64,000 nt of DNA from Chthoniobacteraceae bacterium (GTDB taxonomy: Bacteria; Verrucomicrobiota; Verrucomicrobiia; Chthoniobacterales; Chthoniobacteraceae): contig JAQGOL010000040.1 in NCBI GenBank assembly GCA_028293625.1, forward strand, positions 179,694-243,693, given 5' to 3'. A program made the position numbers and the translations under genes. The notes under the pieces were generated by a model. That model saw only the letters and a program-made list of their open reading frames with translations. It had not been told where the DNA came from and made no database searches. Below, piece after piece: positions 1-61,628 of the stretch; position 1 is the stretch's first letter, and each line of letters opens with the position of its first letter.

Positions 1-661
1 CGAAAAACAAGCTAAGTTCCCGGCGAGTCACCATCGGCAGCGAAAAGGTGGTGTCCATCAGGATATACCGGCACACAGTCTTACCAGTGATCAGTCGCAG
101 AGCAGCGCCCAATTCGGCCGTCGAACGCAGCTGAATACCGACATTCGCGGTATCGGAAGCGCGGGGCAGAATGAGGTCTGCGAGCAGCTTTACGGCGGTG
201 TGCCCTTGGTGCGTCATCCGGTTTTTGAGTTCCCGGTAGTCAGATTGCTGAATTACCTCCAGTGGTGGGCATCCCGCTAGAGCCTCGAGTGCGGCGAGCC
301 ATCGAATCATTGCCTCGTCGGTGTTTTCGGGCAGCCAGATAAATTCGAGAGCGGGTTCCTCGAGCGCCTTTACCTCAACCAATCCATGCGTGGCATCGGT
401 GCGATACATCGTGCCCGACGCGCTCGCGACATAGACGAACGAATCCGCGTAGCTGAAGCTTGGATAGTCGCCGCTCCCATCGACGCCACCCATGTTGAAC
501 GGCTCAGCGGTAGTTGTGTGGGCAAAGCCGCGGATCCCTTTGCGGATGAAGTCCGCCTCCTCGTCATCAATCCGCTCCTTCGTCTCCCACCGGCTCATGT
601 CTTTCGCCATCACCGCGATTTTGCGACGAGCCATTTCGCGGATGTGAACCGTGTAAGCCAT
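1..661 (-). CDS. Hypothetical protein, C-terminus runs off window; contains GGVDGSG motif (possibly NurA-like, unproven)
   Basis: Manual reverse-strand translation from ATG at 661 gives an uninterrupted frame to the window edge (MAYTVHIREMARRKIAVMAKDMSRWETKERIDDEEADFIRKGIRGFAHTTTAEPFNMGGVDGSGDYPSF...); starts 2 bp after the dpdA-like stop. Absent from the supplied ORF track because it has no stop in the window. Confidence 0.75.
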   Translation of the reverse strand, partial: MAYTVHIREMARRKIAVMAKDMSRWETKERIDDEEADFIRKGIRGFAHTTTAEPFNMGGVDGSGDYPSFSYADSFVYVASASGTMYRTDATHGLVEVKALEEPALEFIWLPENTDEAMIRWLAALEALAGCPPLEVIQQSDYRELKNRMTHQGHTAVKLLADLILPRASDTANVGIQLRSTAELGAALRLITGKTVCRYILMDTTFSLPMVTRRELSLFF

Positions 662-663
662 GG

Positions 664-2787
664 TCAGACGGCCGCAAGAAGGGATAGCTCCATCTGGTCT
701 GCCACCAGGTCGGCACGATGCTTTAGAAAAGACACCGGTTCGCCACGGAGGATCTGCTGAAACAGGCGATAGAAGACGTAAGTGTTGTGGAAGCCTCGCC
801 GACGGTTTCGATTGTTCCCACGAAAGATGGCGACCTCAACCCCCGAACTCTCGCAGATCGCGCAACCGCACTTTTCCCAAGGACGATCAGTCAGCGTTCT
901 GCGGTATGCATCTGTCATGTCAACTCGATCCGAAGTCACGAACTGATCGTATTCCAACAAGGCCGCGAGACACGCTTCGATGGACACACTGCGTTGTCCT
1001 AAACCGCGCACCGCGCGCAAAGCTTCTTGTTCCAAGCGCGTGACCTTGTCCTGAGTCAGCCCGCCGTGTTCCTCCATGTGCTTGGCTCGAAAACTCTTTC
1101 CCGCTTCTGGAATTCGTAGCGCGGCGTAAGGCCCATCAAACGACGTGTAACTTTGATTGATGCGCATCCACGCTTGGCGCAGAAACGACGCACTATCCAC
1201 AGACTGAATACCGGCTTCAGCGAAGGTGTTCAGTGCATCGAGCCGGGCGACTCCTAAGAGATGGATACGGACGTTCATCGGAACCTTCTCCCGAACCTTG
1301 CGAACAACTTGAAGGATTTCGCGAGAGTTACTCCTGACCATCCCACCAAGGGCGAGATAGCGGTAGCCCATCTTCACGTATTGCTCAGCCGCGGAGGCGT
1401 AAGACTCGGCATCCCAGCCTTGGACAGCACCGATAGGTTCCCATTTTAGCCCCGCCTTGTGATGCTGCTTTAGAAATTCTTCCGCATTTTGGATGGTGAG
1501 GTCGTAGCGAAACTGCTTCTGCGCCTCGGTCGCGCTGACGATGAGGTGATCCACGGAAACGCCAAGATCGAAATCGAGCCGCGTGTAGTAGTCGAGCACG
1601 TCCTCTGTTGTGTAGGGTGGGCGCTCCTGCATGATGTAGTCGAACGCGCCGCAATCGCCCATGATGGGATACTGGCGTGGCACGCGCAGGAAGCGATGAA
1701 CTCCCAGGGCATTGATGCGCTCCTTCTTCTTTTTACTCTTCTCCGCGACTGCGCGGGACACGAGGAGACCGTCGTAGTTCGGCTCGGGATACATCTGGTG
1801 CGCATAAACCTGGTTCGACCAGTCGCCCGTTCCTCCGGAATGCGTGTCGTTGCGAAAGTCGTAATCCGGGTCCACGAGATCGTCCCATTCCGGGATGAAG
1901 TAACGCAGCTTCGAGCGATGCGGCTTTTGCCACCACGAGTCGGGAATGTTGATGACGCGATCCACCGATGCATTGGCGCGCATTGCCGTGCGCGTGCTTT
2001 TCTTAGCAAACGCCACCGCGTCGACATCGAGCAATGCCAGCACATCCGTCGTCGGGTCCATGATTTTTGAAATCAGCTCCGGTTCGATCGCCAGCTTTTC
2101 GAGCAGCCGCTTCGCAATCTCGCCCTTCAAGCCGATCAACGCGCATGAGAACCGCTTTGCCTCGAGATTTGAGAGCGTCACGACCCGCACATTTGCCAAA
2201 CGTGGCAGTTTCTTGGCCATGCCTGTGCCGCATAACAGCAAAGTAGGTCCTCCGAACTTCACCGCTACGTCCAGTGCACATGGCTTGAGATAATTGTCAC
2301 CGAGCAGGATCAATCCAAAGTCATAATGCTGCGCGACTAACTTCCGAAACGCCTCCGGCACATCGAGCGCCTTCGCCCAATCAGCGAGTTCCTTCGTCTT
2401 CATCGTGGCAAAGGTGCATTCGTAAGGGGCGATCCTCCGATTTTCCGGGATGATACCGTAGCCGGCGGACAGAACGTGCAGATCGAGACGGGTCGTCCCC
2501 GCCGTCGCGCTCTGACGAAAAGCCGTCACGCCACGCATCAAACGGACGTGCTGCTCACCGGTGTAAATTTCCCCGGCCGTCCGAAGTAATTCCTTCAGCT
2601 CCCCTTCCCGTTTAATCACATGCGCTGCCCCTCGCTGAAAATCGTCCAGCACGAGCTGTTGTGGATTTTCCACCGCTTTCTCGCCTGTACAGGAGGTGAG
2701 AGTTAAAATTTGCACGGCGGGGTGGGATTGAAAGTCATTTGGAGAATCCCCTGAATAGGATGTTCCCACCCAGGGAACAAGGGACAT
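664..2787 (-). CDS. dpdA: DpdA-like tRNA-guanine transglycosylase paralogue with N-terminal DUF6884/YaaA-like domain
   Basis: N-term ILTLTSCTGEKAV...LHVLSAGYGIIPENRRIAPYECTF (DUF6884-like); TGT-like DCGAFDYI, GAVQGWDAESY...GYRYLALGGMV, HLLGVARLDALNTFAEAGIQSVDSASFLRQAW, and CxCxxC...H zinc motif (CGCAICE...H). Confidence 0.8.
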   Translation of the reverse strand: MSLVPWVGTSYSGDSPNDFQSHPAVQILTLTSCTGEKAVENPQQLVLDDFQRGAAHVIKREGELKELLRTAGEIYTGEQHVRLMRGVTAFRQSATAGTTRLDLHVLSAGYGIIPENRRIAPYECTFATMKTKELADWAKALDVPEAFRKLVAQHYDFGLILLGDNYLKPCALDVAVKFGGPTLLLCGTGMAKKLPRLANVRVVTLSNLEAKRFSCALIGLKGEIAKRLLEKLAIEPELISKIMDPTTDVLALLDVDAVAFAKKSTRTAMRANASVDRVINIPDSWWQKPHRSKLRYFIPEWDDLVDPDYDFRNDTHSGGTGDWSNQVYAHQMYPEPNYDGLLVSRAVAEKSKKKKERINALGVHRFLRVPRQYPIMGDCGAFDYIMQERPPYTTEDVLDYYTRLDFDLGVSVDHLIVSATEAQKQFRYDLTIQNAEEFLKQHHKAGLKWEPIGAVQGWDAESYASAAEQYVKMGYRYLALGGMVRSNSREILQVVRKVREKVPMNVRIHLLGVARLDALNTFAEAGIQSVDSASFLRQAWMRINQSYTSFDGPYAALRIPEAGKSFRAKHMEEHGGLTQDKVTRLEQEALRAVRGLGQRSVSIEACLAALLEYDQFVTSDRVDMTDAYRRTLTDRPWEKCGCAICESSGVEVAIFRGNNRNRRRGFHNTYVFYRLFQQILRGEPVSFLKHRADLVADQMELSLLAAV

Positions 2788-2894
2788 TGCACCAAGAATT
2801 CCCCAGAAGACAGAAGTGTTGGAGTCGGGTTTCAGGAGCCCCTTCCAGGCTGAAGCCCGCCTTCACGTACTCATGAGACTGATTAACTGATTGA

Positions 2895-5800
2895 TTAATC
2901 AAGTCCATTGGCAGCCAGCAGTTGCATGTAACGTGGGTCGTAAACGAGATTTTTGGACGAATCGCCTCCATCGAATAGCACTTTGAGGTGCAAAGTGGAG
3001 CCGGAGTGGTTTGCATGGACGATCTCCCCTTCGCCGTCATCATCTTTAAAGAGTTTCATTCCTACCTTCGGCTCCAAGGGATGGAATTCGACGGGCTCGC
3101 CACATTCGCTCCAGCCGCGATCAAACCGAAATTGGGTAATCTTTTCGACGGGATTCTGAATCGCATGTATGCGGACCAACTTCGAATCGAGCGCATTCTC
3201 CACCACGTAGAGCCAGAATTCGTCGCCCCTCTCCCATCCTTCCTCAAATTGAATTGAGGATAGCGGCACGCCATTATTACCCCACTCTCCGTTAATGCCC
3301 TTTACCTCTATGTATCGCTCGACGATGCGACCACGCCTAGACTCAACGTCGTAGCCCGCGTTCGCGTGTGCCATATTCTGCGGCCTTCGGCCTTGGCTCC
3401 GCTCATACTGGAGCACCCAGCCCACGGCCGCGTTTCCAACCCGATGATTGATCGGAACTTCGTCATCACTCGCGTCACCGTTGCGCCGCTGCTCCACCTG
3501 CTTCTCATTCTTCGGACGGGAAATCCAAAGATCGTCTTGCCTCTTTGGCGTGTTGTGAGGTTGAAGTTTGCCGGTGCTTCCATTTCCGGTGCCCGGAAGC
3601 ATCCGTCCTCGACGTTCGCCACCGCCGCCGCCACTACTAGCAGCAGTTTGTTTTCTGACTTCATTCTGCCCAGACTCTCTGGCGCGCCCATTCTGAGGGT
3701 GTTGCTCATCTTCGCTGGACTCGTCCGATTCCTCCTCAGGCCCCTTAGTCTCCTGAGATCGATCATTGCCACCTGCCACAGGACCATCGGTCAGGTCTTC
3801 AGATCTAGTTTTCAGATTCGTCTCTTCCAAAAGGTCGGTCTCCTCGTCGCCATCTCCAGAGGATTCGTCGAACTCAATTTCGTGAGCCGGGTCGGCAGCT
3901 GTCCCAGAATCAAATTCTCCTTGGGCAATCTGCGGAATCCGTCGGCGATCCAAGCGAGAACTAATTTCCGCCGTTGGCCAACGGAGAATGGCGGCGAGGT
4001 CACCTTTATCGATTTGTTCATCCGACGCCAATAGCTCGTTCAAGGCTAACGCGAGTTGATCTGGCAAATCGTCACTAGCTGATTCAGCGAGGCAAACAAC
4101 ACAAGAGTCCCTATCATTGAGCGACACGCAAAAATCTTCGTCAGTTTTAGCTAGATCAAAAACTTGCCCGCCAAATTCAACCTGATTTGCACACCTAAGC
4201 TTTACCACTGGTTTTAACTCAATGATCTCCGGCAGTTCAATCGTGGCTCCTGCAAATCCGTATTGGTGATTAGCAAGTCGGCGAAATCCATCAAGAAATT
4301 CATCATTTGTTAATACGACCTCCAGCCGACTGCACTCATTGCGAAAAGCCGCTGCTTGGCTGTCTTCCAAAGCACAATCCACGATCTTCTGCAAAAGTTG
4401 GCTGACACGTGCAATATTAAGGCGTTCGATGAGGAGTTCGGGAGTGTTGCGGTGCAGAAAACGCAAATGGAGTGCTGGCACCATACTCTTTTCGAGCCAC
4501 GCATCATCCAAATGCAATACATCCTGCGATCTGGCGACGTAGCCGAAGCGATCCAGAACCGGACACGAGTTTAACACAGTCTCACCTGAAATCAGAAGCG
4601 TCATAGCGGCCTGAATCGCAAGAAACTGCTTCGCATCTCCTTCTTCGAGTTTCACGCCATTACCCGCGCGCGTAGCGATACTGGACAAAACCTCAATGTA
4701 ATCCTCGATCCCTGGGTAGGCCCGGCGCCCGAGACGATCAAGTGCATCTGCCAGCCACGCTCTACTTTTTCCGCCCGGCACGTAATTTATCTTCCACGGA
4801 GCGAGACAAACCGGCGCGGAGCGGAAAAGATCGCAGGGTTTATAAAAACGATGCCGTTCGGGGTGATAGACGCAGGCAATCTCGCGTATCGTATAAAAGG
4901 CCTCATGCGCACTCGCCGCAGTATCTGCTTCATCAAAATCGAGCCGGCCGAAATACTCAAGAATCACGCGCGCTGGGGTTGAAACACGTTTGTGTTCCAC
5001 CTCGTTTAGCTCTCGCGCGCCATATGGTTTAAGAAGTATCTGAAGATGGGCGACGACCAGCGCTGGATCAGGCTGCTCGCGAAAACCAAGCTCTTCACGC
5101 ATCTCGGCTGACGGCGCTCTGCGTCCCTGCTTAAGAAGCGGGGCTTGGGACGCCACCAAGTTACCTTGCTCTGCGAGAAAAACCATCGACGGTTGATACA
5201 ACCGGTCTTCCGGTGCCACTGGCGATCCAAACAGCTGTAAGCGGTCCAGATCACGCACAACAGGGCACCAAGCCAGATCACTTAGGAACTCCGCAAACGT
5301 AACCTCGTTTGAGTCCGAATCATCAACAATCTCTTCCCGAAGCGAGTTCCAATGTTCCGTCACGTGGGCCAGAAACAACTCTACTTGTCTTGCCTCAATC
5401 GCCGTCAAACTACGATTTAATGCCGTTACACTTAATCTCAAAATAATGTCTGCCAGGTCCTGTGGCCGCGGCATCTTGGCGAGTTGAAAACCGCGAAAGA
5501 AACCCACCCAGATATCTTTTTGGTCTGCGTAGAACTCCAAATCTGGAAACGCTGCACCTTCCCCGATAACTGTCTTCACTAATTCCTGACAGGCTGGGTC
5601 GTAAACCTCAGAAATTGAAGATAATAGACCGTTGGTTGTCCGAACAAGCGGTGTTTTTCCAAGTAACGCTAAAAGCTGCTTACATTCGACTTCACTACAA
5701 TCATTGAGAATCGAATTCCATTCATCCCGTATCCATCTTAACAGCAGCAGCTGTTCGTTGGATTCCCTCGTCTCGTACGACTTCAAGACGTAATCACACA

Positions 5801-8468
5801 GCAGCGTGCGCCGATTTAGTTCCGCCACGCCAAGGAGCTCGATCAAGCCGCGCCACCCTGATTCGCGCAGTAAGCGAACCGGCAATTTAACCTCCGGCGA
5901 GCTAAATGCTCCCGGTAAAAAACAAGAGTTGCTAATGCCCGCAAACGTCCGGGTTTGATCCTCGAATAGAGGAAGCTGCCGCAATTTCGCGAGAAGATCT
6001 GCATCCTGCGCGATCGTATCGAGAGCCTCAGTTGATGACAGGAAACAGAGCAGAGGCTCCACAACCTCCGTACGCGCCCAGGCTTCCTGTTTTTCCGCCA
6101 GCTCCTCAATCTCAGATGTTAGGCTGTCGGCAAGATCCTTCGGAGTCAGATACCAAACACGTTCGTAATTCGAAGCAAATCGTTCTAAGTTCTTCGACAG
6201 TGCATCATCGCTGAGCAGGAAATGCAGAACACCGACTTCCTTCAGAATGCGACAAAGAGCCTTTTGAGGAGACTTTACGAGTAATGGCGTCTGATACGCC
6301 CCCGGGTGATGCAACCGTCCGTCGTCCCCCGGAATCAACTGCATCTTATCTATGATGTCACTCTCAGGTTTTTCGTCCGTCGAAACCGCATTCAATTCTG
6401 CGAGAACGTTGGTTATCCACTGTCGATTGGGAGGCTTCGGGCCGCTTAAATCCCAAACGGCATCGTTGTCTGTTGTTGACCCCGTTACACGAGGCACAAG
6501 CTGCGCAATATGAACCCCTGTCATTCGCATCGCTCCTGTCCCAGGGCGCAATGAGAGGGCCACTGCACTGGCGAGCTTTTCGTCCAGAAACCAGTCAGAG
6601 AAAGTTGCGAAGATGTCGCGTTGGCGAGCCGTGCCAATAAATCTCACTACCGGATCACCAAAGCCCAGCGTGTGCAGTTTTCCATCGGCACAAAGCGCGA
6701 GCGGCAGCCCTTTCCAATCGTTAAACGTCGGATCGTCCAGCAGAAATGTAATAACAGCTTCGACTTGGGATCGGATTCTCAGACCCGGATAAGGCACCTC
6801 GGCTAGAGGTAGCCCAATATCGTGGTCCGTATGGAAATGGTCACGAATGTCGGAACTATCCAAATTTGCTGGAGCGTCTCCCCCAAGTCCGTCGATGACG
6901 AAATCCGGGATTATTGGCTGGGGAATCAGAAATTTCTCCGCCACCAGGCACGCAAGTAAATGAGGTTGATTTTCCGGAAGAGGAACCAGGTTGGCGGCCG
7001 GATACCATACACCATCCACACATCGAAAAAACGGAAGAGGCGCAATCTTCGAATAGACTGAGGGCGATAATTTAGCCAGTGGTCCAGTGATAACGCCTAC
7101 TGGGCTAGGAAACTTCAAATAGAGCGCTTCTGCCTCACCATTCTCCGCCTCCTGGTCGAGATCGTGCTCTTTAACAAATTCCAGTGCTTGGCAATATGCT
7201 TCAGCGACGCCGTCCTCAATAAGCAAGTCGTTCCACAGTCCTCTCGCCCGCTTATGCAGATCTTCACCCGCAGTGTGTGAGGTGATATCCGAGCGTCCGG
7301 AGTCAATGTCGAATGAGCCATGGAGTTGTACAGGAAATGTGCCGTGTTTCGCGCCGAGCGGGAGAAAACAGCAGACCTGCCCATCAATGGACGGCAACCT
7401 AATTCCGCCCCGCTCAAGACAAACAGCAACACCGGCGCTAGGTATCGCCTTTTCGTGGTGTAGACGGAGTGCGCGAGCCTGATCCACCAATCTCCCATCC
7501 TTACCAGCGTAAAGCCCAGTTATTACGCGCCACTTCACTGACCGGCCAGACAAGCTCTGACCTTCTGTTACCTTAATTTCGTGGAGAAATGAGGTAGTAA
7601 TTCGACCCTCGGGAGCTGATGAGATCTCATCCAAAGCTTGCTCCACGGTGCCAATGAGAACGTCATTCACCTTTTCTCTGCCCACACGAACGTCCTCTGG
7701 ATTTAGGGTCTCAATCTCGAGAAGTGGAATGCGCTTGGATGTTTTTGGATCAACTCGATAGCAGCCGATAAATTCGAGGTTCTTCAAAAATAGCATGACC
7801 GAATCTGCGATATCTAACAGTCCCGAGACTAAAATATCGAAGATCTCGGGGCCAAACACCACGCTGGAAATCGCACCCCTCGTCTGTTCGACGTGATTCT
7901 GGCTGCGCAAAGGAAGCCGAAAAATCGTACCTTCGTGATGAGGCTCTTTTCCGCTGAAGCATCCCGGAATGAACAGATCGAGAAACTGCGAGTTTTCCTT
8001 AACTACTTCATCATCGAGACGCCACTTCTCTCCGCTGTCGCCTCGACCAACTATTGTAGCGCACGGATCAAATAAACACAGATCGTTTCCTGTTAACAAC
8101 AGCGGGAAGTCCGTCAGATTATAGACCGAATTAAAACCTAACCCGAATCGGCCTGTCTTCCCAGCCGCCTCAATCTTCTCACTATCAGCAAGACGCTGAA
8201 TGTTCTCGAGATCTTCCGGCGAAAATGTCTTGTCGTTCGCGGCAATGATTGCCGGTCCACCAAGCATTCGCATTCCTGGAAGCGGAGCGTTCACTTCGCC
8301 GCGATCACGCGGATCCAAAATCAGGAGAATTTCGCGAGCGCCACCGTCGTCGGCATTTTGAATGAGCTCTTTTAAGATCCCAACGTCACACGGATAATCT
8401 CGGATCAGTTTTCTGATGGCAACAGACACCGGTTGCCTTTGCCCGAATTTTTCACGAACAGAACTCAT
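2895..8468 (-). CDS. Giant sacsin-type HATPase protein with C-terminal DUF3883-like domain
   Basis: 1857 aa; N-term ILKELIQNADDGGAREILLILD and GRFGLGFNSVYNLTDFPLLLTGNDLCLFDP match sacsin/Nov HATPase motifs; C-term GYDVESRRGRIVERYIEVKGINGEW resembles DUF3883. Confidence 0.8.
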   Translation of the reverse strand: MSSVREKFGQRQPVSVAIRKLIRDYPCDVGILKELIQNADDGGAREILLILDPRDRGEVNAPLPGMRMLGGPAIIAANDKTFSPEDLENIQRLADSEKIEAAGKTGRFGLGFNSVYNLTDFPLLLTGNDLCLFDPCATIVGRGDSGEKWRLDDEVVKENSQFLDLFIPGCFSGKEPHHEGTIFRLPLRSQNHVEQTRGAISSVVFGPEIFDILVSGLLDIADSVMLFLKNLEFIGCYRVDPKTSKRIPLLEIETLNPEDVRVGREKVNDVLIGTVEQALDEISSAPEGRITTSFLHEIKVTEGQSLSGRSVKWRVITGLYAGKDGRLVDQARALRLHHEKAIPSAGVAVCLERGGIRLPSIDGQVCCFLPLGAKHGTFPVQLHGSFDIDSGRSDITSHTAGEDLHKRARGLWNDLLIEDGVAEAYCQALEFVKEHDLDQEAENGEAEALYLKFPSPVGVITGPLAKLSPSVYSKIAPLPFFRCVDGVWYPAANLVPLPENQPHLLACLVAEKFLIPQPIIPDFVIDGLGGDAPANLDSSDIRDHFHTDHDIGLPLAEVPYPGLRIRSQVEAVITFLLDDPTFNDWKGLPLALCADGKLHTLGFGDPVVRFIGTARQRDIFATFSDWFLDEKLASAVALSLRPGTGAMRMTGVHIAQLVPRVTGSTTDNDAVWDLSGPKPPNRQWITNVLAELNAVSTDEKPESDIIDKMQLIPGDDGRLHHPGAYQTPLLVKSPQKALCRILKEVGVLHFLLSDDALSKNLERFASNYERVWYLTPKDLADSLTSEIEELAEKQEAWARTEVVEPLLCFLSSTEALDTIAQDADLLAKLRQLPLFEDQTRTFAGISNSCFLPGAFSSPEVKLPVRLLRESGWRGLIELLGVAELNRRTLLCDYVLKSYETRESNEQLLLLRWIRDEWNSILNDCSEVECKQLLALLGKTPLVRTTNGLLSSISEVYDPACQELVKTVIGEGAAFPDLEFYADQKDIWVGFFRGFQLAKMPRPQDLADIILRLSVTALNRSLTAIEARQVELFLAHVTEHWNSLREEIVDDSDSNEVTFAEFLSDLAWCPVVRDLDRLQLFGSPVAPEDRLYQPSMVFLAEQGNLVASQAPLLKQGRRAPSAEMREELGFREQPDPALVVAHLQILLKPYGARELNEVEHKRVSTPARVILEYFGRLDFDEADTAASAHEAFYTIREIACVYHPERHRFYKPCDLFRSAPVCLAPWKINYVPGGKSRAWLADALDRLGRRAYPGIEDYIEVLSSIATRAGNGVKLEEGDAKQFLAIQAAMTLLISGETVLNSCPVLDRFGYVARSQDVLHLDDAWLEKSMVPALHLRFLHRNTPELLIERLNIARVSQLLQKIVDCALEDSQAAAFRNECSRLEVVLTNDEFLDGFRRLANHQYGFAGATIELPEIIELKPVVKLRCANQVEFGGQVFDLAKTDEDFCVSLNDRDSCVVCLAESASDDLPDQLALALNELLASDEQIDKGDLAAILRWPTAEISSRLDRRRIPQIAQGEFDSGTAADPAHEIEFDESSGDGDEETDLLEETNLKTRSEDLTDGPVAGGNDRSQETKGPEEESDESSEDEQHPQNGRARESGQNEVRKQTAASSGGGGGERRGRMLPGTGNGSTGKLQPHNTPKRQDDLWISRPKNEKQVEQRRNGDASDDEVPINHRVGNAAVGWVLQYERSQGRRPQNMAHANAGYDVESRRGRIVERYIEVKGINGEWGNNGVPLSSIQFEEGWERGDEFWLYVVENALDSKLVRIHAIQNPVEKITQFRFDRGWSECGEPVEFHPLEPKVGMKLFKDDDGEGEIVHANHSGSTLHLKVLFDGGDSSKNLVYDPRYMQLLAANGLD

Positions 8469-9334: not shown

Positions 9335-10294
9335 TCACTTCTTCGTCAGCTTGGGACCGAAATAAGCGATGAACATCCGTCGACTTTCGAACGGCGGCGG
9401 CCACTCAAAATGGAGTCGGAAGACATTGGTCCTTATTTTTCCGTGCCAGTAGCACCAAAGATATTCCCCAGAGCAAGGATGACAAAAACGCATGCGCAAA
9501 TTGAACTCTGAATCATTTTTCTCACTCTGAGACGCGTCACTGAACCGATCACTGGTCAACCACTCCGAGCAAAGTTTATTGTAGCGTTCTATATCGTTTT
9601 TGCTCAACGCTTCGACAATAGCGTTCAACGCCGCGAGCAACTCTTTGCCACGCTTCGCGATGGCAGGAATAAAAGTGCTTCCCAGTTGCCCCAGGATGTC
9701 TTTGCGAATGATGGCGAGCTGCCCGCAATGGCTTTGAGCCCAGTGGATGAGCGTCTCATAACTATCCAAGGTCGACTCGCAAGCCTTTGCAAAGCTTGCT
9801 ACTTCCTCCAGAGTCACCGCGTTATCAAGCAAAAAAGAAATCGTCCCATATGGCCCTTGATGCCACGTAACTGTCAACTTGGTAGGGGTATAGGAGCTAT
9901 TAGGCAACGACACCATCACAGGATGATCGCCTTCCCGAGAAAGGTGAGCCGCCTCGGCAAGCGCCGTCTCCGTAACAGGCTTCCCCTCACATTCAAAATA
10001 TTCCTGATCGCTATGCCGCGCTGGTCGATCCCAGAAGGGGCCTTGTTTATCCAGCCACACGAGGAGGCGTTGACGCTGCTGCGGCGACAGCGACTTGAGT
10101 GCCTCTTGGACTGTGGGGACAAAGCCCACTAACGCCCGGCGAAAGTTGTATCCCACCTCCAGCCCTGCCCCAAAATCATTGAGCAAGGAATGGACTTCCA
10201 TGCAGAAGCGGATGCAATGACGGAAGTCGTCCGCGCTTGCACATTGCCCATGCCAGGAGGCGTCGTTGAAAAGAAAACGACGGCTCAGTCCCAT
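9335..10294 (-). CDS. Hypothetical protein, third gene of DUF262/ATPase operon
   Basis: 319-aa ORF overlapping the upstream ATPase gene by 10 bp; no family recognised. Confidence 0.65.
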   Translation of the reverse strand: MGLSRRFLFNDASWHGQCASADDFRHCIRFCMEVHSLLNDFGAGLEVGYNFRRALVGFVPTVQEALKSLSPQQRQRLLVWLDKQGPFWDRPARHSDQEYFECEGKPVTETALAEAAHLSREGDHPVMVSLPNSSYTPTKLTVTWHQGPYGTISFLLDNAVTLEEVASFAKACESTLDSYETLIHWAQSHCGQLAIIRKDILGQLGSTFIPAIAKRGKELLAALNAIVEALSKNDIERYNKLCSEWLTSDRFSDASQSEKNDSEFNLRMRFCHPCSGEYLWCYWHGKIRTNVFRLHFEWPPPFESRRMFIAYFGPKLTKK

Positions 10295-11424
10295 GTGGTC
10301 AACACTTCGAGATCCTGTTCGAGTTGATCAAAAAAACCTTTAGGCCAATTATCGATCTGGCCGTTTTGATTAAGTATCGGACTGATCACATGCGGAGTGA
10401 CGTCTCTAGGTGAAGGCCGGCGATTGAAAAAATGAATCTGGACACTTTCCGCGTGAAGGATCTTTTCTTTGACCGCAACCCTGACGCCGTTTAGCACATG
10501 ATCGCTGTGAGATTCGATAATCACCTGACGTCCAGTCGCCGCGACTTGGGCTAAGAATTTTCCAATTAGCGCTTGGGCCGAGGGATGGAGATGAGTTTCA
10601 GGATTTTCTACGACTAGAACCCCGTCTGCCTCAGTGGCCAGCGCTCCGACAACGATTGGCAGCACATATGTCAACCCGAATCCTACATTTTGAGGACGAT
10701 GAAGATTTCCTGCTGCGCTGGTTCGCAAACGAAGAGTGACAAGGTTTGCTCCATCCACACGCTTTACTTCGAGCCCTGCACCCGGAAAAAACGCTCCCAA
10801 CCAAGCTTCCGTTTGACGCAACAAAGTTGGTGGAACATCTAGACGGCACAGCTCCTCAGCCACCGTTGATTCCCGGCGCTGGTAAAGTAGCCAAGCTGTA
10901 AATTCTCCACGCGGCCCCAAATGACATGAATTTTCTTCGGGTCCGGTATCTGCACCATACGTCTCCCGTGGCCCCATCCGTTCAGTGGGCACATGTAGCA
11001 ATCGCGAAAGCTGCCCCCAGGGCTCACGATCATCCTCCGGCCAAGTTTTAACCGGATTCTCCAAAGTTCCGTCGCTCTCCAACATGCTTTCAACTTGAGT
11101 CACTAAGGCATCCCGGACTTCCGTCAAGCACTTGACATTGAGGCGTCGCCCTCCGGCGCTAAAGCCAATTGAAAAGTATCCTCGCGCGGTTCGCTCATCC
11201 ATGACATCGCCTACCGTGCCTAAATCCACGTCGATGCCATTGAGGCACACGCTGACCTGACCGGGAAAGCGCATAGCCGAACGCGACTGTTTGAGCAATA
11301 GCAGCGCCTGAATGACGCTAGATTTGCCTCCAGCATTAAAACCAGTCAACAGAGTCAGGGGCTTAAGGGGCAGGTCGAGCTCCTCAAAGCATTTGAAATG
11401 ACGCAAATGAATAAAATCGATCAT
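10285..11424 (-). CDS. AAA family ATPase (SMC/RecF-like, DUF3696-type)
   Basis: MIDFIHLRHFKCFEELDLPLKPLTLLTGFNAGGKSSVIQALLLLKQSR (Walker A), GFGLTYVLPIVVGAL, GVLVVENPETHLHPSAQ (Walker B), IIESHSDHVLNGVRVAV. Confidence 0.85.
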   Translation of the reverse strand: MIDFIHLRHFKCFEELDLPLKPLTLLTGFNAGGKSSVIQALLLLKQSRSAMRFPGQVSVCLNGIDVDLGTVGDVMDERTARGYFSIGFSAGGRRLNVKCLTEVRDALVTQVESMLESDGTLENPVKTWPEDDREPWGQLSRLLHVPTERMGPRETYGADTGPEENSCHLGPRGEFTAWLLYQRRESTVAEELCRLDVPPTLLRQTEAWLGAFFPGAGLEVKRVDGANLVTLRLRTSAAGNLHRPQNVGFGLTYVLPIVVGALATEADGVLVVENPETHLHPSAQALIGKFLAQVAATGRQVIIESHSDHVLNGVRVAVKEKILHAESVQIHFFNRRPSPRDVTPHVISPILNQNGQIDNWPKGFFDQLEQDLEVLTTWD

Positions 11425-12509
11425 AAGAGTAAAGGCAGAAGAAGAGTCTCCGCCATTTCGAATCGCGTTCTCACCATTCGCACCGAGTTAGTAGAGCGGC
11501 TGATTGCCAGATCAAAACCCGGGTCTTGGATGAGCGATCGAATAGCCGTAACGATTTCCCGATTCCGCTGTTTTACCAAGGTCTCAGAGGCGCACGCGAA
11601 TACCACAGAAAGTACATCAAATAGCGCGACGTTGAGCACGCTTCGGGACTCGGGCGTTATGAGAGATTTCCTGAAGGCATGAGCTCCCTGAACCGACAAA
11701 TTGAGCTTCATCGATTTAAGAAAGTTCGCCGTCAAACTGACTAAATCGCAACCTTTGTTCATTTGTGAGAGTGTCTTTCCAAGAAAATCGTCCATCTCCC
11801 CAGCGTAGTTTTGCCAGCCATTGAGCTGAAAGGCAGCGAAGCGGTTAATACACTCCCGGTCACGCATCGTTTTGGAGTTCAAACTCCGCCCAGTTGCCTC
11901 CAGAAACTCCTCTGTGCATGCTACGGCGTCTAACCAGTGCGTTGCTTGGCCTGTGAATAAGCCATTCCGCATCTGCTGTCGAGTCAACGGCACACCGCTA
12001 TTGACTCGCTCAAAAATCTCATATTTGGCCGATTCCGGAACTTGACTGTCGATAAGATAAAGTTGCAAGGGAGTGTCCTCGATCCGATTCTGAAGCGCTG
12101 GAGGTAGGTCGCGGAATTTTCTACCATTCAGATCGTCGGAAAACCCCAACCCTTTTAGCTTAAAGTCGTTATTCAGAAATCGGTGGAAGGTAGTCAGCCT
12201 TTGAAGACCATCAACCACAACGATTTTCCCATCCAATGTTTCGGCCAGATAAAAGACAGGCAGCGGAATCCGCAGCAGCGCCGACTCGATGAGCTTACTC
12301 TGGCGTTCTTGATCCCATACAAAATCCCGTTGAAAATCCGGGTCCATCACATACTGCTTGGATTTAATCCGCCGATCTACCTCGAAGACGCTACGTGTTT
12401 CAGAGCGAATCATAATGCTCTCGATCGGAAAACCGCCAAGGCGCAGCGATTGTTCCTCGTATCCGTCCACGTCAGGCTTTTTTATACTGATTTCAGGTTC
12501 AATGGACAT
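11421..12509 (-). CDS. DUF262 (ParB/GmrS-like) domain protein
   Basis: YVMDPDFQRDFVWDQERQSKLIESALLRIPLPVFYLAETLDGKIVVVDGLQRLTTFHRFL is a DUF262 signature; 4-bp overlap with the ATPase gene. Confidence 0.85.
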   Translation of the reverse strand: MSIEPEISIKKPDVDGYEEQSLRLGGFPIESIMIRSETRSVFEVDRRIKSKQYVMDPDFQRDFVWDQERQSKLIESALLRIPLPVFYLAETLDGKIVVVDGLQRLTTFHRFLNNDFKLKGLGFSDDLNGRKFRDLPPALQNRIEDTPLQLYLIDSQVPESAKYEIFERVNSGVPLTRQQMRNGLFTGQATHWLDAVACTEEFLEATGRSLNSKTMRDRECINRFAAFQLNGWQNYAGEMDDFLGKTLSQMNKGCDLVSLTANFLKSMKLNLSVQGAHAFRKSLITPESRSVLNVALFDVLSVVFACASETLVKQRNREIVTAIRSLIQDPGFDLAISRSTNSVRMVRTRFEMAETLLLPLLL

Positions 12510-61590: not shown

Positions 61591-61628
61591 AGCCTTTGTT
61601 GTAGGTTCAAGTCCTACCTCAGGAGCCA
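61591..61628 (+). other. 3' fragment of a tRNA gene (T-arm, acceptor 3' strand, CCA): candidate attachment site
   Basis: GTAGG-TTCAAGT-CCTAC T-arm, CTCAGGA acceptor strand, G, CCA; no matching TCCTGAG 5' half upstream. Confidence 0.65.

What the first reader, a model, noticed from the sequence alone, without database searches (positions are those of the whole stretch)
664..8468. DpdA-like base-modification enzyme next to a giant sacsin-HATPase/DUF3883 protein
DpdA homologues insert 7-deazaguanine derivatives into DNA and are normally found with dpdB/C and a dpdD-K restriction set. Here a DUF6884-TGT protein is instead downstream, on the same strand, of an 1857-aa protein with sacsin-type HATPase motifs and a C-terminal GYDVES...ERYIEVKG segment reminiscent of PD-(D/E)xK folds. 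This has the logic of a modification module plus sensor/nuclease and may be a compact alternative Dpd-type or phage-derived defence system. No preQ0 synthesis genes are in the window.
Basis: partly seen in the sequence, partly recalled or inferred. Interest (0 to 1): 0.75.

Follow-up and report, generated by a model that had tools for sequence, protein, structure and literature searches.

The report
Dpd-type DNA modification with HerA–NurA nucleases
The gene pair is the visible edge of a larger gene cluster, found in at least eight bacterial phyla, that probably marks the cell's own DNA with a modified guanine (7-deazaguanine) and destroys unmarked DNA with a set of nucleases not described for the known Dpd systems; the giant sacsin-like protein is only an occasional add-on.

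Summary
The 707-aa protein is a DpdA (NCBIfam DpdA, E 5e-134; closest solved structure 7UI4, the DNA preQ0 insertase) with its catalytic and zinc residues intact. Its N-terminus is a fused DpdC domain. The 1857-aa neighbour is a sacsin-HATPase/NOV_C protein of PADLOC's TmtA (Tiamat) family.

The interpretation needs extending. The window cuts the operon. Directly left lie NurA, HerA, a fast-evolving restriction-like protein, UvrD helicase and a PD-(D/E)XK nuclease. A second small TGT (TGT2) and two Hel308-like helicases follow. The same set recurs in eight phyla, two cyanobacterial plasmids included. PreQ0 genes (queC, queE, queD, folE2) sit directly upstream in many relatives, and elsewhere in this genome. 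NurA-type clusters carry no DpdB and none of DpdD/E/F/H/J/K (0 of 13). TGT2 is in 12 of 14 NurA-type genomes and 0 of 32 other DpdA genomes.

The sacsin gene is not constant. It occurs in only 3 of 16 relatives, yet each time inside the cluster, so it looks like a recurrent accessory.

Best reading: a new Dpd variant, a 7-deazaguanine restriction-modification system with a NurA–HerA/UvrD–nuclease restriction arm. Chemistry and defence are inferred, not shown.

The parts
664..2787 (-). DpdC-DpdA fusion (DpdCA), 707 aa: modification enzyme
   Evidence: NF041059 DpdA E 4.8e-134; PADLOC DpdA 5.7e-123 and DpdC 2e-07; 7UI4 E 3.7e-78 by sequence, Foldseek E 3.4e-35, TM(target) 0.87
2020..2718 (-). 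N-terminal DpdC/DUF6884 domain of DpdCA (about aa 24-256)
   Evidence: profile-profile match to canonical DpdC, hhalign probability 99.4, E 4.5e-22 over 201 columns; domain boundaries from the model
745..1935 (-). C-terminal TGT (DpdA) domain of DpdCA (aa 285-681)
1654..1656 (-). Asp378 of the GDCGAF motif (first catalytic Asp position of TGTs)
   Evidence: invariant in 29 homologues; aligned to MGDCGAF of 7UI4
1195..1197 (-). Asp531 (position of the TGT nucleophile)
   Evidence: invariant in 29 homologues; aligned to the Asp of SIDST in 7UI4
787..870 (-). zinc-site motif CxCxxC...H (Cys640, Cys642, Cys645, His667)
2895..8468 (-). sacsin-HATPase/NOV_C protein, 1857 aa, TmtA (Tiamat) family; optional component
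   Evidence: Pfam SACS 4.3e-54, NOV_C 4.6e-13; PADLOC TmtA PDLC03969 4.7e-102; sacsin structures 5V44-5V47, best E 4e-36
7734..8435 (-). sacsin HATPase domain (aa 12-245)
   Evidence: motifs ELIQNADD and GRFGLGFNSVY
3180..3431 (-). NOV_C/DUF3883 domain (aa 1680-1763), PD-(D/E)XK-like motif GYDVES..ERYIEVKG
   Evidence: motif shared by three cluster-embedded sacsins
1..661 (-). NurA-like nuclease, N-terminal part; the 401-aa gene continues left of the window to C11:179149, 2 bp from DpdCA
   Evidence: 48% identical to Picosynechococcus AWQ23_RS14580 annotated NurA (Pfam NurA 8e-06); 11-member alignment with invariant residues
61601..61628 (.). attR: 28-bp copy of the 3' end of tRNA-Asn, right end of the ~87-kb island
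   Evidence: identical to C11:154047-154074; no tRNA gene at this place

Best explanation
The gene belongs to a distinct Dpd-type 7-deazaguanine restriction-modification system carried on an integrated island. Proposed steps. (1) The host makes preQ0 (queC/E/D/folE2; genes shown, product inferred). (2) DpdCA exchanges guanine in the cell's DNA for preQ0 with its TGT domain and may hydrolyse the nitrile to the amide (dADG) with its fused DpdC domain (homology shown, chemistry inferred). (3) TGT2, a second small TGT with a complete base-exchange site but no zinc subdomain, works with two Hel308-like helicases on opened DNA and may stand in for DpdB (inferred). (4) A fast-evolving restriction-like protein (p590 family) supplies target recognition or the first cut, and the HerA-NurA translocase-nuclease and UvrD-PD-(D/E)XK helicase-nuclease degrade DNA that lacks the mark (inferred). 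(5) Some loci, this one included, add a TmtA-type sacsin-HATPase/NOV_C protein as an extra ATP-driven sensor/nuclease (recurrence shown, role inferred).
For: DpdA identity, fold and intact active site. DpdC fusion. Tight operon: DpdCA-NurA gap 2 bp, the genes through p382 at 7 bp or less or overlapping. The same set on Picosynechococcus and Nostoc plasmids (NurA 48-52%, HerA 61%, TGT2 55-60%, Hel308-likes 42-49%; UvrD 52% and PDDEXK 48% in Picosynechococcus). NurA plus HerA with DpdA in 13 of 79 genome loci, with UvrD in 11 and PDDEXK in 10 of them, spanning Verrucomicrobiota, Planctomycetota, Pseudomonadota, Acidobacteriota, Bacteroidota, Myxococcota and Bacillota. No canonical DpdD/E/F/H/J/K in any of the 13, against 28 of the other 66 (Fisher p 0.003). 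TGT2 in 12 of 14 NurA-type genomes, 0 of 32 others. PreQ0 genes directly upstream in relatives and in this genome. NurA and TGT2 distances track DpdCA (Mantel r 0.44 p 0.002; r 0.51 p 0.012).
Against: No DNA chemistry and no phage or transformation data. p590 has no Pfam, PADLOC or PDB match. UvrD, PDDEXK and p590 distances do not track DpdCA, and HerA only weakly, so these parts are swapped between clusters. NurA-HerA and UvrD-nuclease pairs also serve DNA repair. With phylogeny taken into account the NurA-TGT2 link rests on only 4 independent pairs (on average 3.4 concordant, 0 opposed, p 0.125). The role of TGT2 is a guess.
Confidence: 0.68

Rival explanations
1. A compact two-gene system: DpdCA marks DNA and the sacsin-HATPase/NOV_C protein alone senses and cuts unmarked DNA.
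For: Same strand, 107-bp gap. Same TmtA subfamily embedded in three relatives' clusters. Strong sacsin hits in 4 of 19 NurA/TGT2-type genomes, 0 of 47 other DpdA genomes, 0 of 288 random genomes of the phylum.
Against: 13 of 16 relatives have no sacsin homologue in the genome or record searched. NurA is 2 bp from DpdCA and conserved with it. Sacsin position varies: next to DpdCA, next to p197, between two PDDEXK genes.
Confidence: 0.06
2. Mobile-element maintenance rather than defence: the modification shields the element's own DNA from host nucleases, and NurA-HerA/UvrD-nuclease serve recombination or end-resection.
For: The cluster lies on plasmids and on a tRNA-integrated island; phage DpdA protects phage DNA from host restriction (PMC6884629); NurA-HerA is an end-resection pair in archaea (PMC4351679).
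Against: Several helicase/nuclease genes and a fast-evolving restriction-like protein in one operon fit restriction better; canonical Dpd islands pair the same mark with a restriction set (PMC11888242); PADLOC defence systems flank the cluster.
Confidence: 0.14
3. Chance mosaic of a defence island: DpdCA, the nucleases, TGT2 and sacsin are independent genes that accumulate in the same hotspot.
For: Menshen (NsnABC) lies directly beside it, and UvrD/PDDEXK/p590 are modular.
Against: The same combination in eight phyla, operonic spacing, absence of canonical dpd restriction genes, and TGT2 12 of 14 versus 0 of 32. For sacsin alone, independent recruitment remains quite possible.
Confidence: 0.08
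4. DpdCA and TGT2 modify tRNA, not DNA.
For: Both are TGT homologues; TGT2 aligns with tRNA TGTs.
Against: DpdCA is closest to the DNA preQ0 insertase 7UI4 and passes the DpdA equivalog cut-off; the genome has two separate full tRNA Tgt genes; neighbours are DNA helicases and nucleases.
Confidence: 0.04

Closest known systems
Dpd system (dpdA-K, Salmonella Montevideo type)
   Same: DpdA TGT that inserts preQ0 into DNA, DpdC domain, preQ0 genes nearby, restriction genes linked, carried on genomic islands
   Different: DpdC fused to DpdA; no DpdB; none of DpdD/E/F/H/J/K; instead NurA-HerA, UvrD-PD-(D/E)XK, p590, TGT2 and two Hel308-like helicases
BREX-Related Capture (BRC) systems (PMC12839542)
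   Same: HerA/FtsK translocase together with a TGT in a defence locus
   Different: BRC is defined by PglZ, DUF6079, DUF4007 and STAND-NTPase and has no DpdC; none of those matched here, and this cluster has DpdC, NurA, UvrD and PDDEXK
Tiamat (TmtA)
   Same: the sacsin-HATPase/NOV_C protein best matches PADLOC's TmtA model PDLC03969
   Different: here it lies inside a Dpd-type cluster and recurs there
HerA-NurA end-resection complex
   Same: adjacent NurA-like nuclease and HerA-family ATPase
   Different: no Mre11/Rad50 identified in the cluster; linked to DNA base-modification genes

Membership tests
Dpd system | DpdA-family TGT with intact catalytic and zinc residues | tested here: met
   NF041059 447 bits (cut-off 200); invariant residues; 7UI4 match
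Dpd system | DpdC | tested here: met
   present as fused N-terminal domain, hhalign probability 99.4
Dpd system | DpdB (DGQHR/ParB-like) | tested here: not met
   no such match among this cluster's proteins nor in any of the 13 NurA-type loci; published as dispensable in some dpd clusters (PMC12839542)
Dpd system | restriction genes dpdD-K | tested here: not met
   0 of 13 NurA-type loci carry DpdD/E/F/H/J/K; this cluster has other helicases and nucleases. DpdG and DpdI were not scored in that count
Dpd system | preQ0 supply | tested here: met
   queC-queE-queD-folE2 at G000:C5:21783-24835
Dpd system | dPreQ0 or dADG in DNA | not testable with these tools
   needs LC-MS
Tiamat (TmtA) | full-length match to TmtA profile | tested here: met
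   PDLC03969 4.7e-102 and PDLC03965 3.2e-98 (aa 8-1788)
Tiamat (TmtA) | stand-alone anti-phage activity | not testable with these tools
   needs phage assay
BREX-Related Capture (BRC) | PglZ, DUF6079, DUF4007, STAND-NTPase | tested here: not met
   no such Pfam match among the cluster proteins scanned
HerA-NurA | NurA nuclease domain next to HerA/DUF87 ATPase | tested here: met
   HerA: DUF87 9.6e-15. NurA: the window's own protein scores only 0.061 to Pfam NurA, but its 48%-identical Picosynechococcus homologue passes (8e-06)

The most novel reading that the evidence does not exclude
A separate type of 7-deazaguanine restriction-modification in which a DpdC-DpdA fusion pairs with a second TGT paralogue (TGT2) that, with Hel308-like helicases, replaces DpdB as the DNA-delivery subunit, and in which HerA-NurA is the primary restriction nuclease. 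The two-TGT design would parallel the eukaryotic QTRT1-QTRT2 heterodimer, but on DNA.
Probability: 0.25. Interest if true: 0.85.

Novelty: new variant of a known kind. Interest (0 to 1): 0.72.

Why it matters
It would extend 7-deazaguanine restriction-modification to a second, widely distributed design with a different restriction arm. Such clusters escape surveys that require dpdA plus dpdB (as in PMC11888242). It makes two open questions testable: what DpdB does and what can replace it, and why a second TGT sits beside two helicases. It also ties the sacsin-type Tiamat protein to a base-modification context, which gives a lead on what that protein senses.

Tried and rejected
Sacsin as constant partner: rejected, 3 of 16 relatives; kept as a recurrent accessory because all three lie inside the cluster. 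Sacsin relatives in plasmids: only domain-level hits. Phage origin: TGT2 not found in IMG/VR; DpdCA relatives in four viral contigs, only one with NurA-HerA; one remote phage-record hit. p590 function by fold: no significant PDB match (best E 0.04; EcoT38I at 0.15), so 'restriction-like' rests on sequence motifs and position. p590, F13 and F18, which occupy the same place, do belong together (hhalign probability 99.4 and 93.4 against p590). DpdB versus second TGT exclusion looked strong by plain counts (Fisher p 0.001) but is not significant once phylogeny is considered, so it is offered only as a lead. Literature: two primary Dpd papers (Thiaville 2016, Gedara 2023) are not in the held library, so a passing mention of DpdC-DpdA fusions or of this cluster there cannot be excluded.

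Full report
Place and extent. The window is G000:C11:179694-243693 of a 6.83-Mb genome; the host is probably a verrucomicrobium (inference: closest DpdCA in Verrucomicrobia bacterium SCGC AAA164-E04, 66% identical). The finding sits in an island of about 87 kb. Its left end is tRNA-Asn (C11:154000-154074), where a tyrosine-integrase reading frame starts. Its right end is a 28-bp copy of the tRNA 3' end, GTAGGTTCAAGTCCTACCTCAGGAGCCA, at window 61601-61628, where no tRNA gene exists.

The observed pair. Both genes are real and correctly placed. The 707-aa protein is DpdA by the NCBIfam equivalog (4.8e-134) and by PADLOC (5.7e-123). By sequence its only PDB match is 7UI4 (3.7e-78), and the AlphaFold2 model (mean pLDDT 84.7) has 7UI4, the DNA preQ0 insertase DpdA, as best Foldseek match (E 3.4e-35). 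In 29 homologues D378 (GDCGAF), D413, Q456, G481 and D531 are invariant and the CxCxxC...H zinc motif is nearly so; that these are the catalytic and base-binding positions follows from the known TGT mechanism. The N-terminal 250 residues are a DpdC domain: PADLOC DpdC 2e-07, HMM match to the gene upstream of canonical dpdA in Enterobacter pPOL9A (2e-13), and hhalign against seven canonical DpdC proteins with probability 99.4, E 4.5e-22. PMC11888242 also lists DUF6884 as the dpdC domain. The 1857-aa protein has a sacsin HATPase domain and a C-terminal NOV_C/DUF3883 domain, which PMC3710099 calls a REase domain. PADLOC files it as TmtA, the Tiamat protein (name from general knowledge).

What the window cut off. 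Left of position 1, on the same strand and tightly packed, follow NurA (401 aa, C11:179149-180354), HerA (177311-179281; its true start is probably inside), p590 (175531-177303), UvrD helicase (173196-175637), p148, a PD-(D/E)XK nuclease (171586-172740), p382 and p190. On the other strand lie an 802-aa Hel308-like helicase (166389-168797) and TGT2 (168807-169682); next to these, on the first strand again, a 197-aa HTH protein and a second Hel308-like helicase (163436-165763). TGT2 is 291 aa with the complete base-exchange site (DSGGF, FTLDFP, Q163, GGL, VDSSS) and lacks the C-terminal zinc motif.

The cluster is conserved. Picosynechococcus PCC 73109 plasmid unnamed3 carries the set without sacsin: NurA 48%, HerA 61%, UvrD 52%, nuclease 48%, TGT2 55%, helicases 49% and 42%, DpdCA 38%. 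Nostoc NIES-3756 pNOS3756_2 carries DpdCA, HTH protein, helicase-TGT2-helicase, HerA and NurA, but LlaJI-type and other restriction genes in place of UvrD/nuclease. One scan of 84,980 species genomes gave 79 DpdA loci. With profile HMMs, 13 have NurA and HerA beside DpdA; 11 of these have UvrD, 10 the PDDEXK nuclease and 8 queD or queE within the fetched stretch. Including the window and the two plasmids they cover eight phyla. None of the 13 carries DpdB or DpdD/E/F/H/J/K, while 28 of the other 66 carry at least one of DpdD/E/F/H/J/K (Fisher p 0.003). On the DpdA tree the NurA label needs 5 changes against 14.9 in shuffles, so the type is old or has moved as a unit a few times.

TGT2 is a signature. 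A whole-genome search with the TGT2 profile found it in 12 of 14 NurA-type genomes or close kin (the two without it are metagenome bins, one of only 1.8 Mb), in four cyanobacterial genomes whose DpdCA form one clade (three show helicase-TGT2-helicase near DpdCA; the fourth's flank is cut) and in 0 of 32 genomes with other DpdA types. Pairwise distances of NurA and TGT2 follow DpdCA (r 0.44, p 0.002; r 0.51, p 0.012); HerA does so only weakly (r 0.17, p 0.06), and UvrD, PDDEXK and p590 do not. I read this as a modification/NurA/TGT2 core with exchangeable effector parts. p590 and the proteins that replace it at the same place (F13, F18) are one fast-diverging superfamily with a PD...THS..S..KFWRN..E motif. 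The p590 model (pLDDT 81) has no significant PDB match.

PreQ0. QueC, QueE, QueD and, in most, FolE2 lie directly upstream of DpdCA in relatives such as L022, L025 and L029. In this genome the same four genes stand in the same order on contig C5 (21783-24835), and two ordinary tRNA Tgt genes lie elsewhere. So the lack of preQ0 genes beside the pair is no objection.

Sacsin. Of 16 genomes or records with the cluster (or its close kin), three have a sacsin-HATPase/NOV_C homologue, and in all three it lies inside the cluster: next to DpdCA in Thiohalocapsa (L119), beside HTH-helicase-TGT2 in Noviherbaspirillum (L120), between two PDDEXK genes in Anaeromyxobacter (L121). All best match the same PADLOC model, PDLC03969, as the window's. 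Strong hits (E below 1e-20) occur in 4 of 19 NurA/TGT2-type genomes (the fourth, G314, a truncated contig whose linkage is unknown), 0 of 47 other DpdA genomes and 0 of 288 random genomes of the phylum. The window's copy is divergent from them (24-44% in the matching parts).

Mechanism. Shown: gene content, homology, intact active-site residues, genomic preQ0 capacity, conservation. Inferred: DpdCA marks self DNA with dPreQ0/dADG; p590-type proteins with HerA-NurA and UvrD-nuclease attack unmarked DNA; TGT2 with Hel308-like helicases takes part in modification, perhaps in place of DpdB, which these clusters lack. The DpdB/second-TGT exclusion is not significant with phylogeny considered.

Known or new. 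Canonical Dpd has dpdA-C plus dpdD-K (PMC11888242, PMC12839542). BRC systems combine HerA with TGT but are built on BREX parts (PMC12839542). Searches of the held literature found no description of DpdA with NurA, and PADLOC has no match for this NurA, p590, F13 or F18. Two key Dpd papers could not be read, so novelty is stated with that reservation. I class it as a new variant of a known kind.

Noticed in passing
window 9335-12509 (-): A complete Menshen-type defence operon (NsnA 8.8e-117, NsnB 5.1e-102, NsnC 6.4e-66 in PADLOC) directly upstream of the sacsin gene, separated by 866 bp.
   Followed up: partly
window 61601-61628 and C11:154047-154074: 28-bp direct repeat of the tRNA-Asn 3' end bounding an ~87-kb island with a tyrosine integrase at the tRNA.
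   Followed up: yes
L017:17977-20864, L018:17974-19266, L019:18004-20888: Deinococcus plasmids carry a TGT2-like gene directly before (or in one with) a DEAD helicase or a gene of similar size; no DpdA was annotated in the neighbourhood. A TGT2-helicase pair may act on its own.
   Followed up: partly
L084, L086, L089, L090, L092: Archaeal and Chloroflexota loci have a short stand-alone DUF6884 gene, then UvrD, PD-(D/E)XK nuclease and a separate DpdA: a second Dpd arrangement using the same UvrD-nuclease pair but without NurA/HerA in view.
   Followed up: partly
L054-L057, L060, L062, L064, L078, L080: Paenibacillus/Bacillus-type clusters with DpdCA, most with canonical dpd genes, have a different second ~300-aa TGT close downstream and no DpdB seen in the flanks.
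   Followed up: partly
L013:8533-15649: Haloarchaeal plasmid (Haloarcula sinaiiensis pHsi139) with a DpdA-like protein, QueE/QueD just upstream, a second TGT and an EVE-domain protein (possible modified-base reader) in one stretch.
   Followed up: no
L002:3-3320 and L004:17810-19138: Two DUF262-like genes left of the second Hel308-like helicase and a dGTPase-like gene near the island's left end; not found near the relatives' clusters.
   Followed up: no
G000:C1:32278-33330 and G000:C38:95839-96885: The genome has two full-length tRNA Tgt genes besides DpdCA and TGT2.
   Followed up: no
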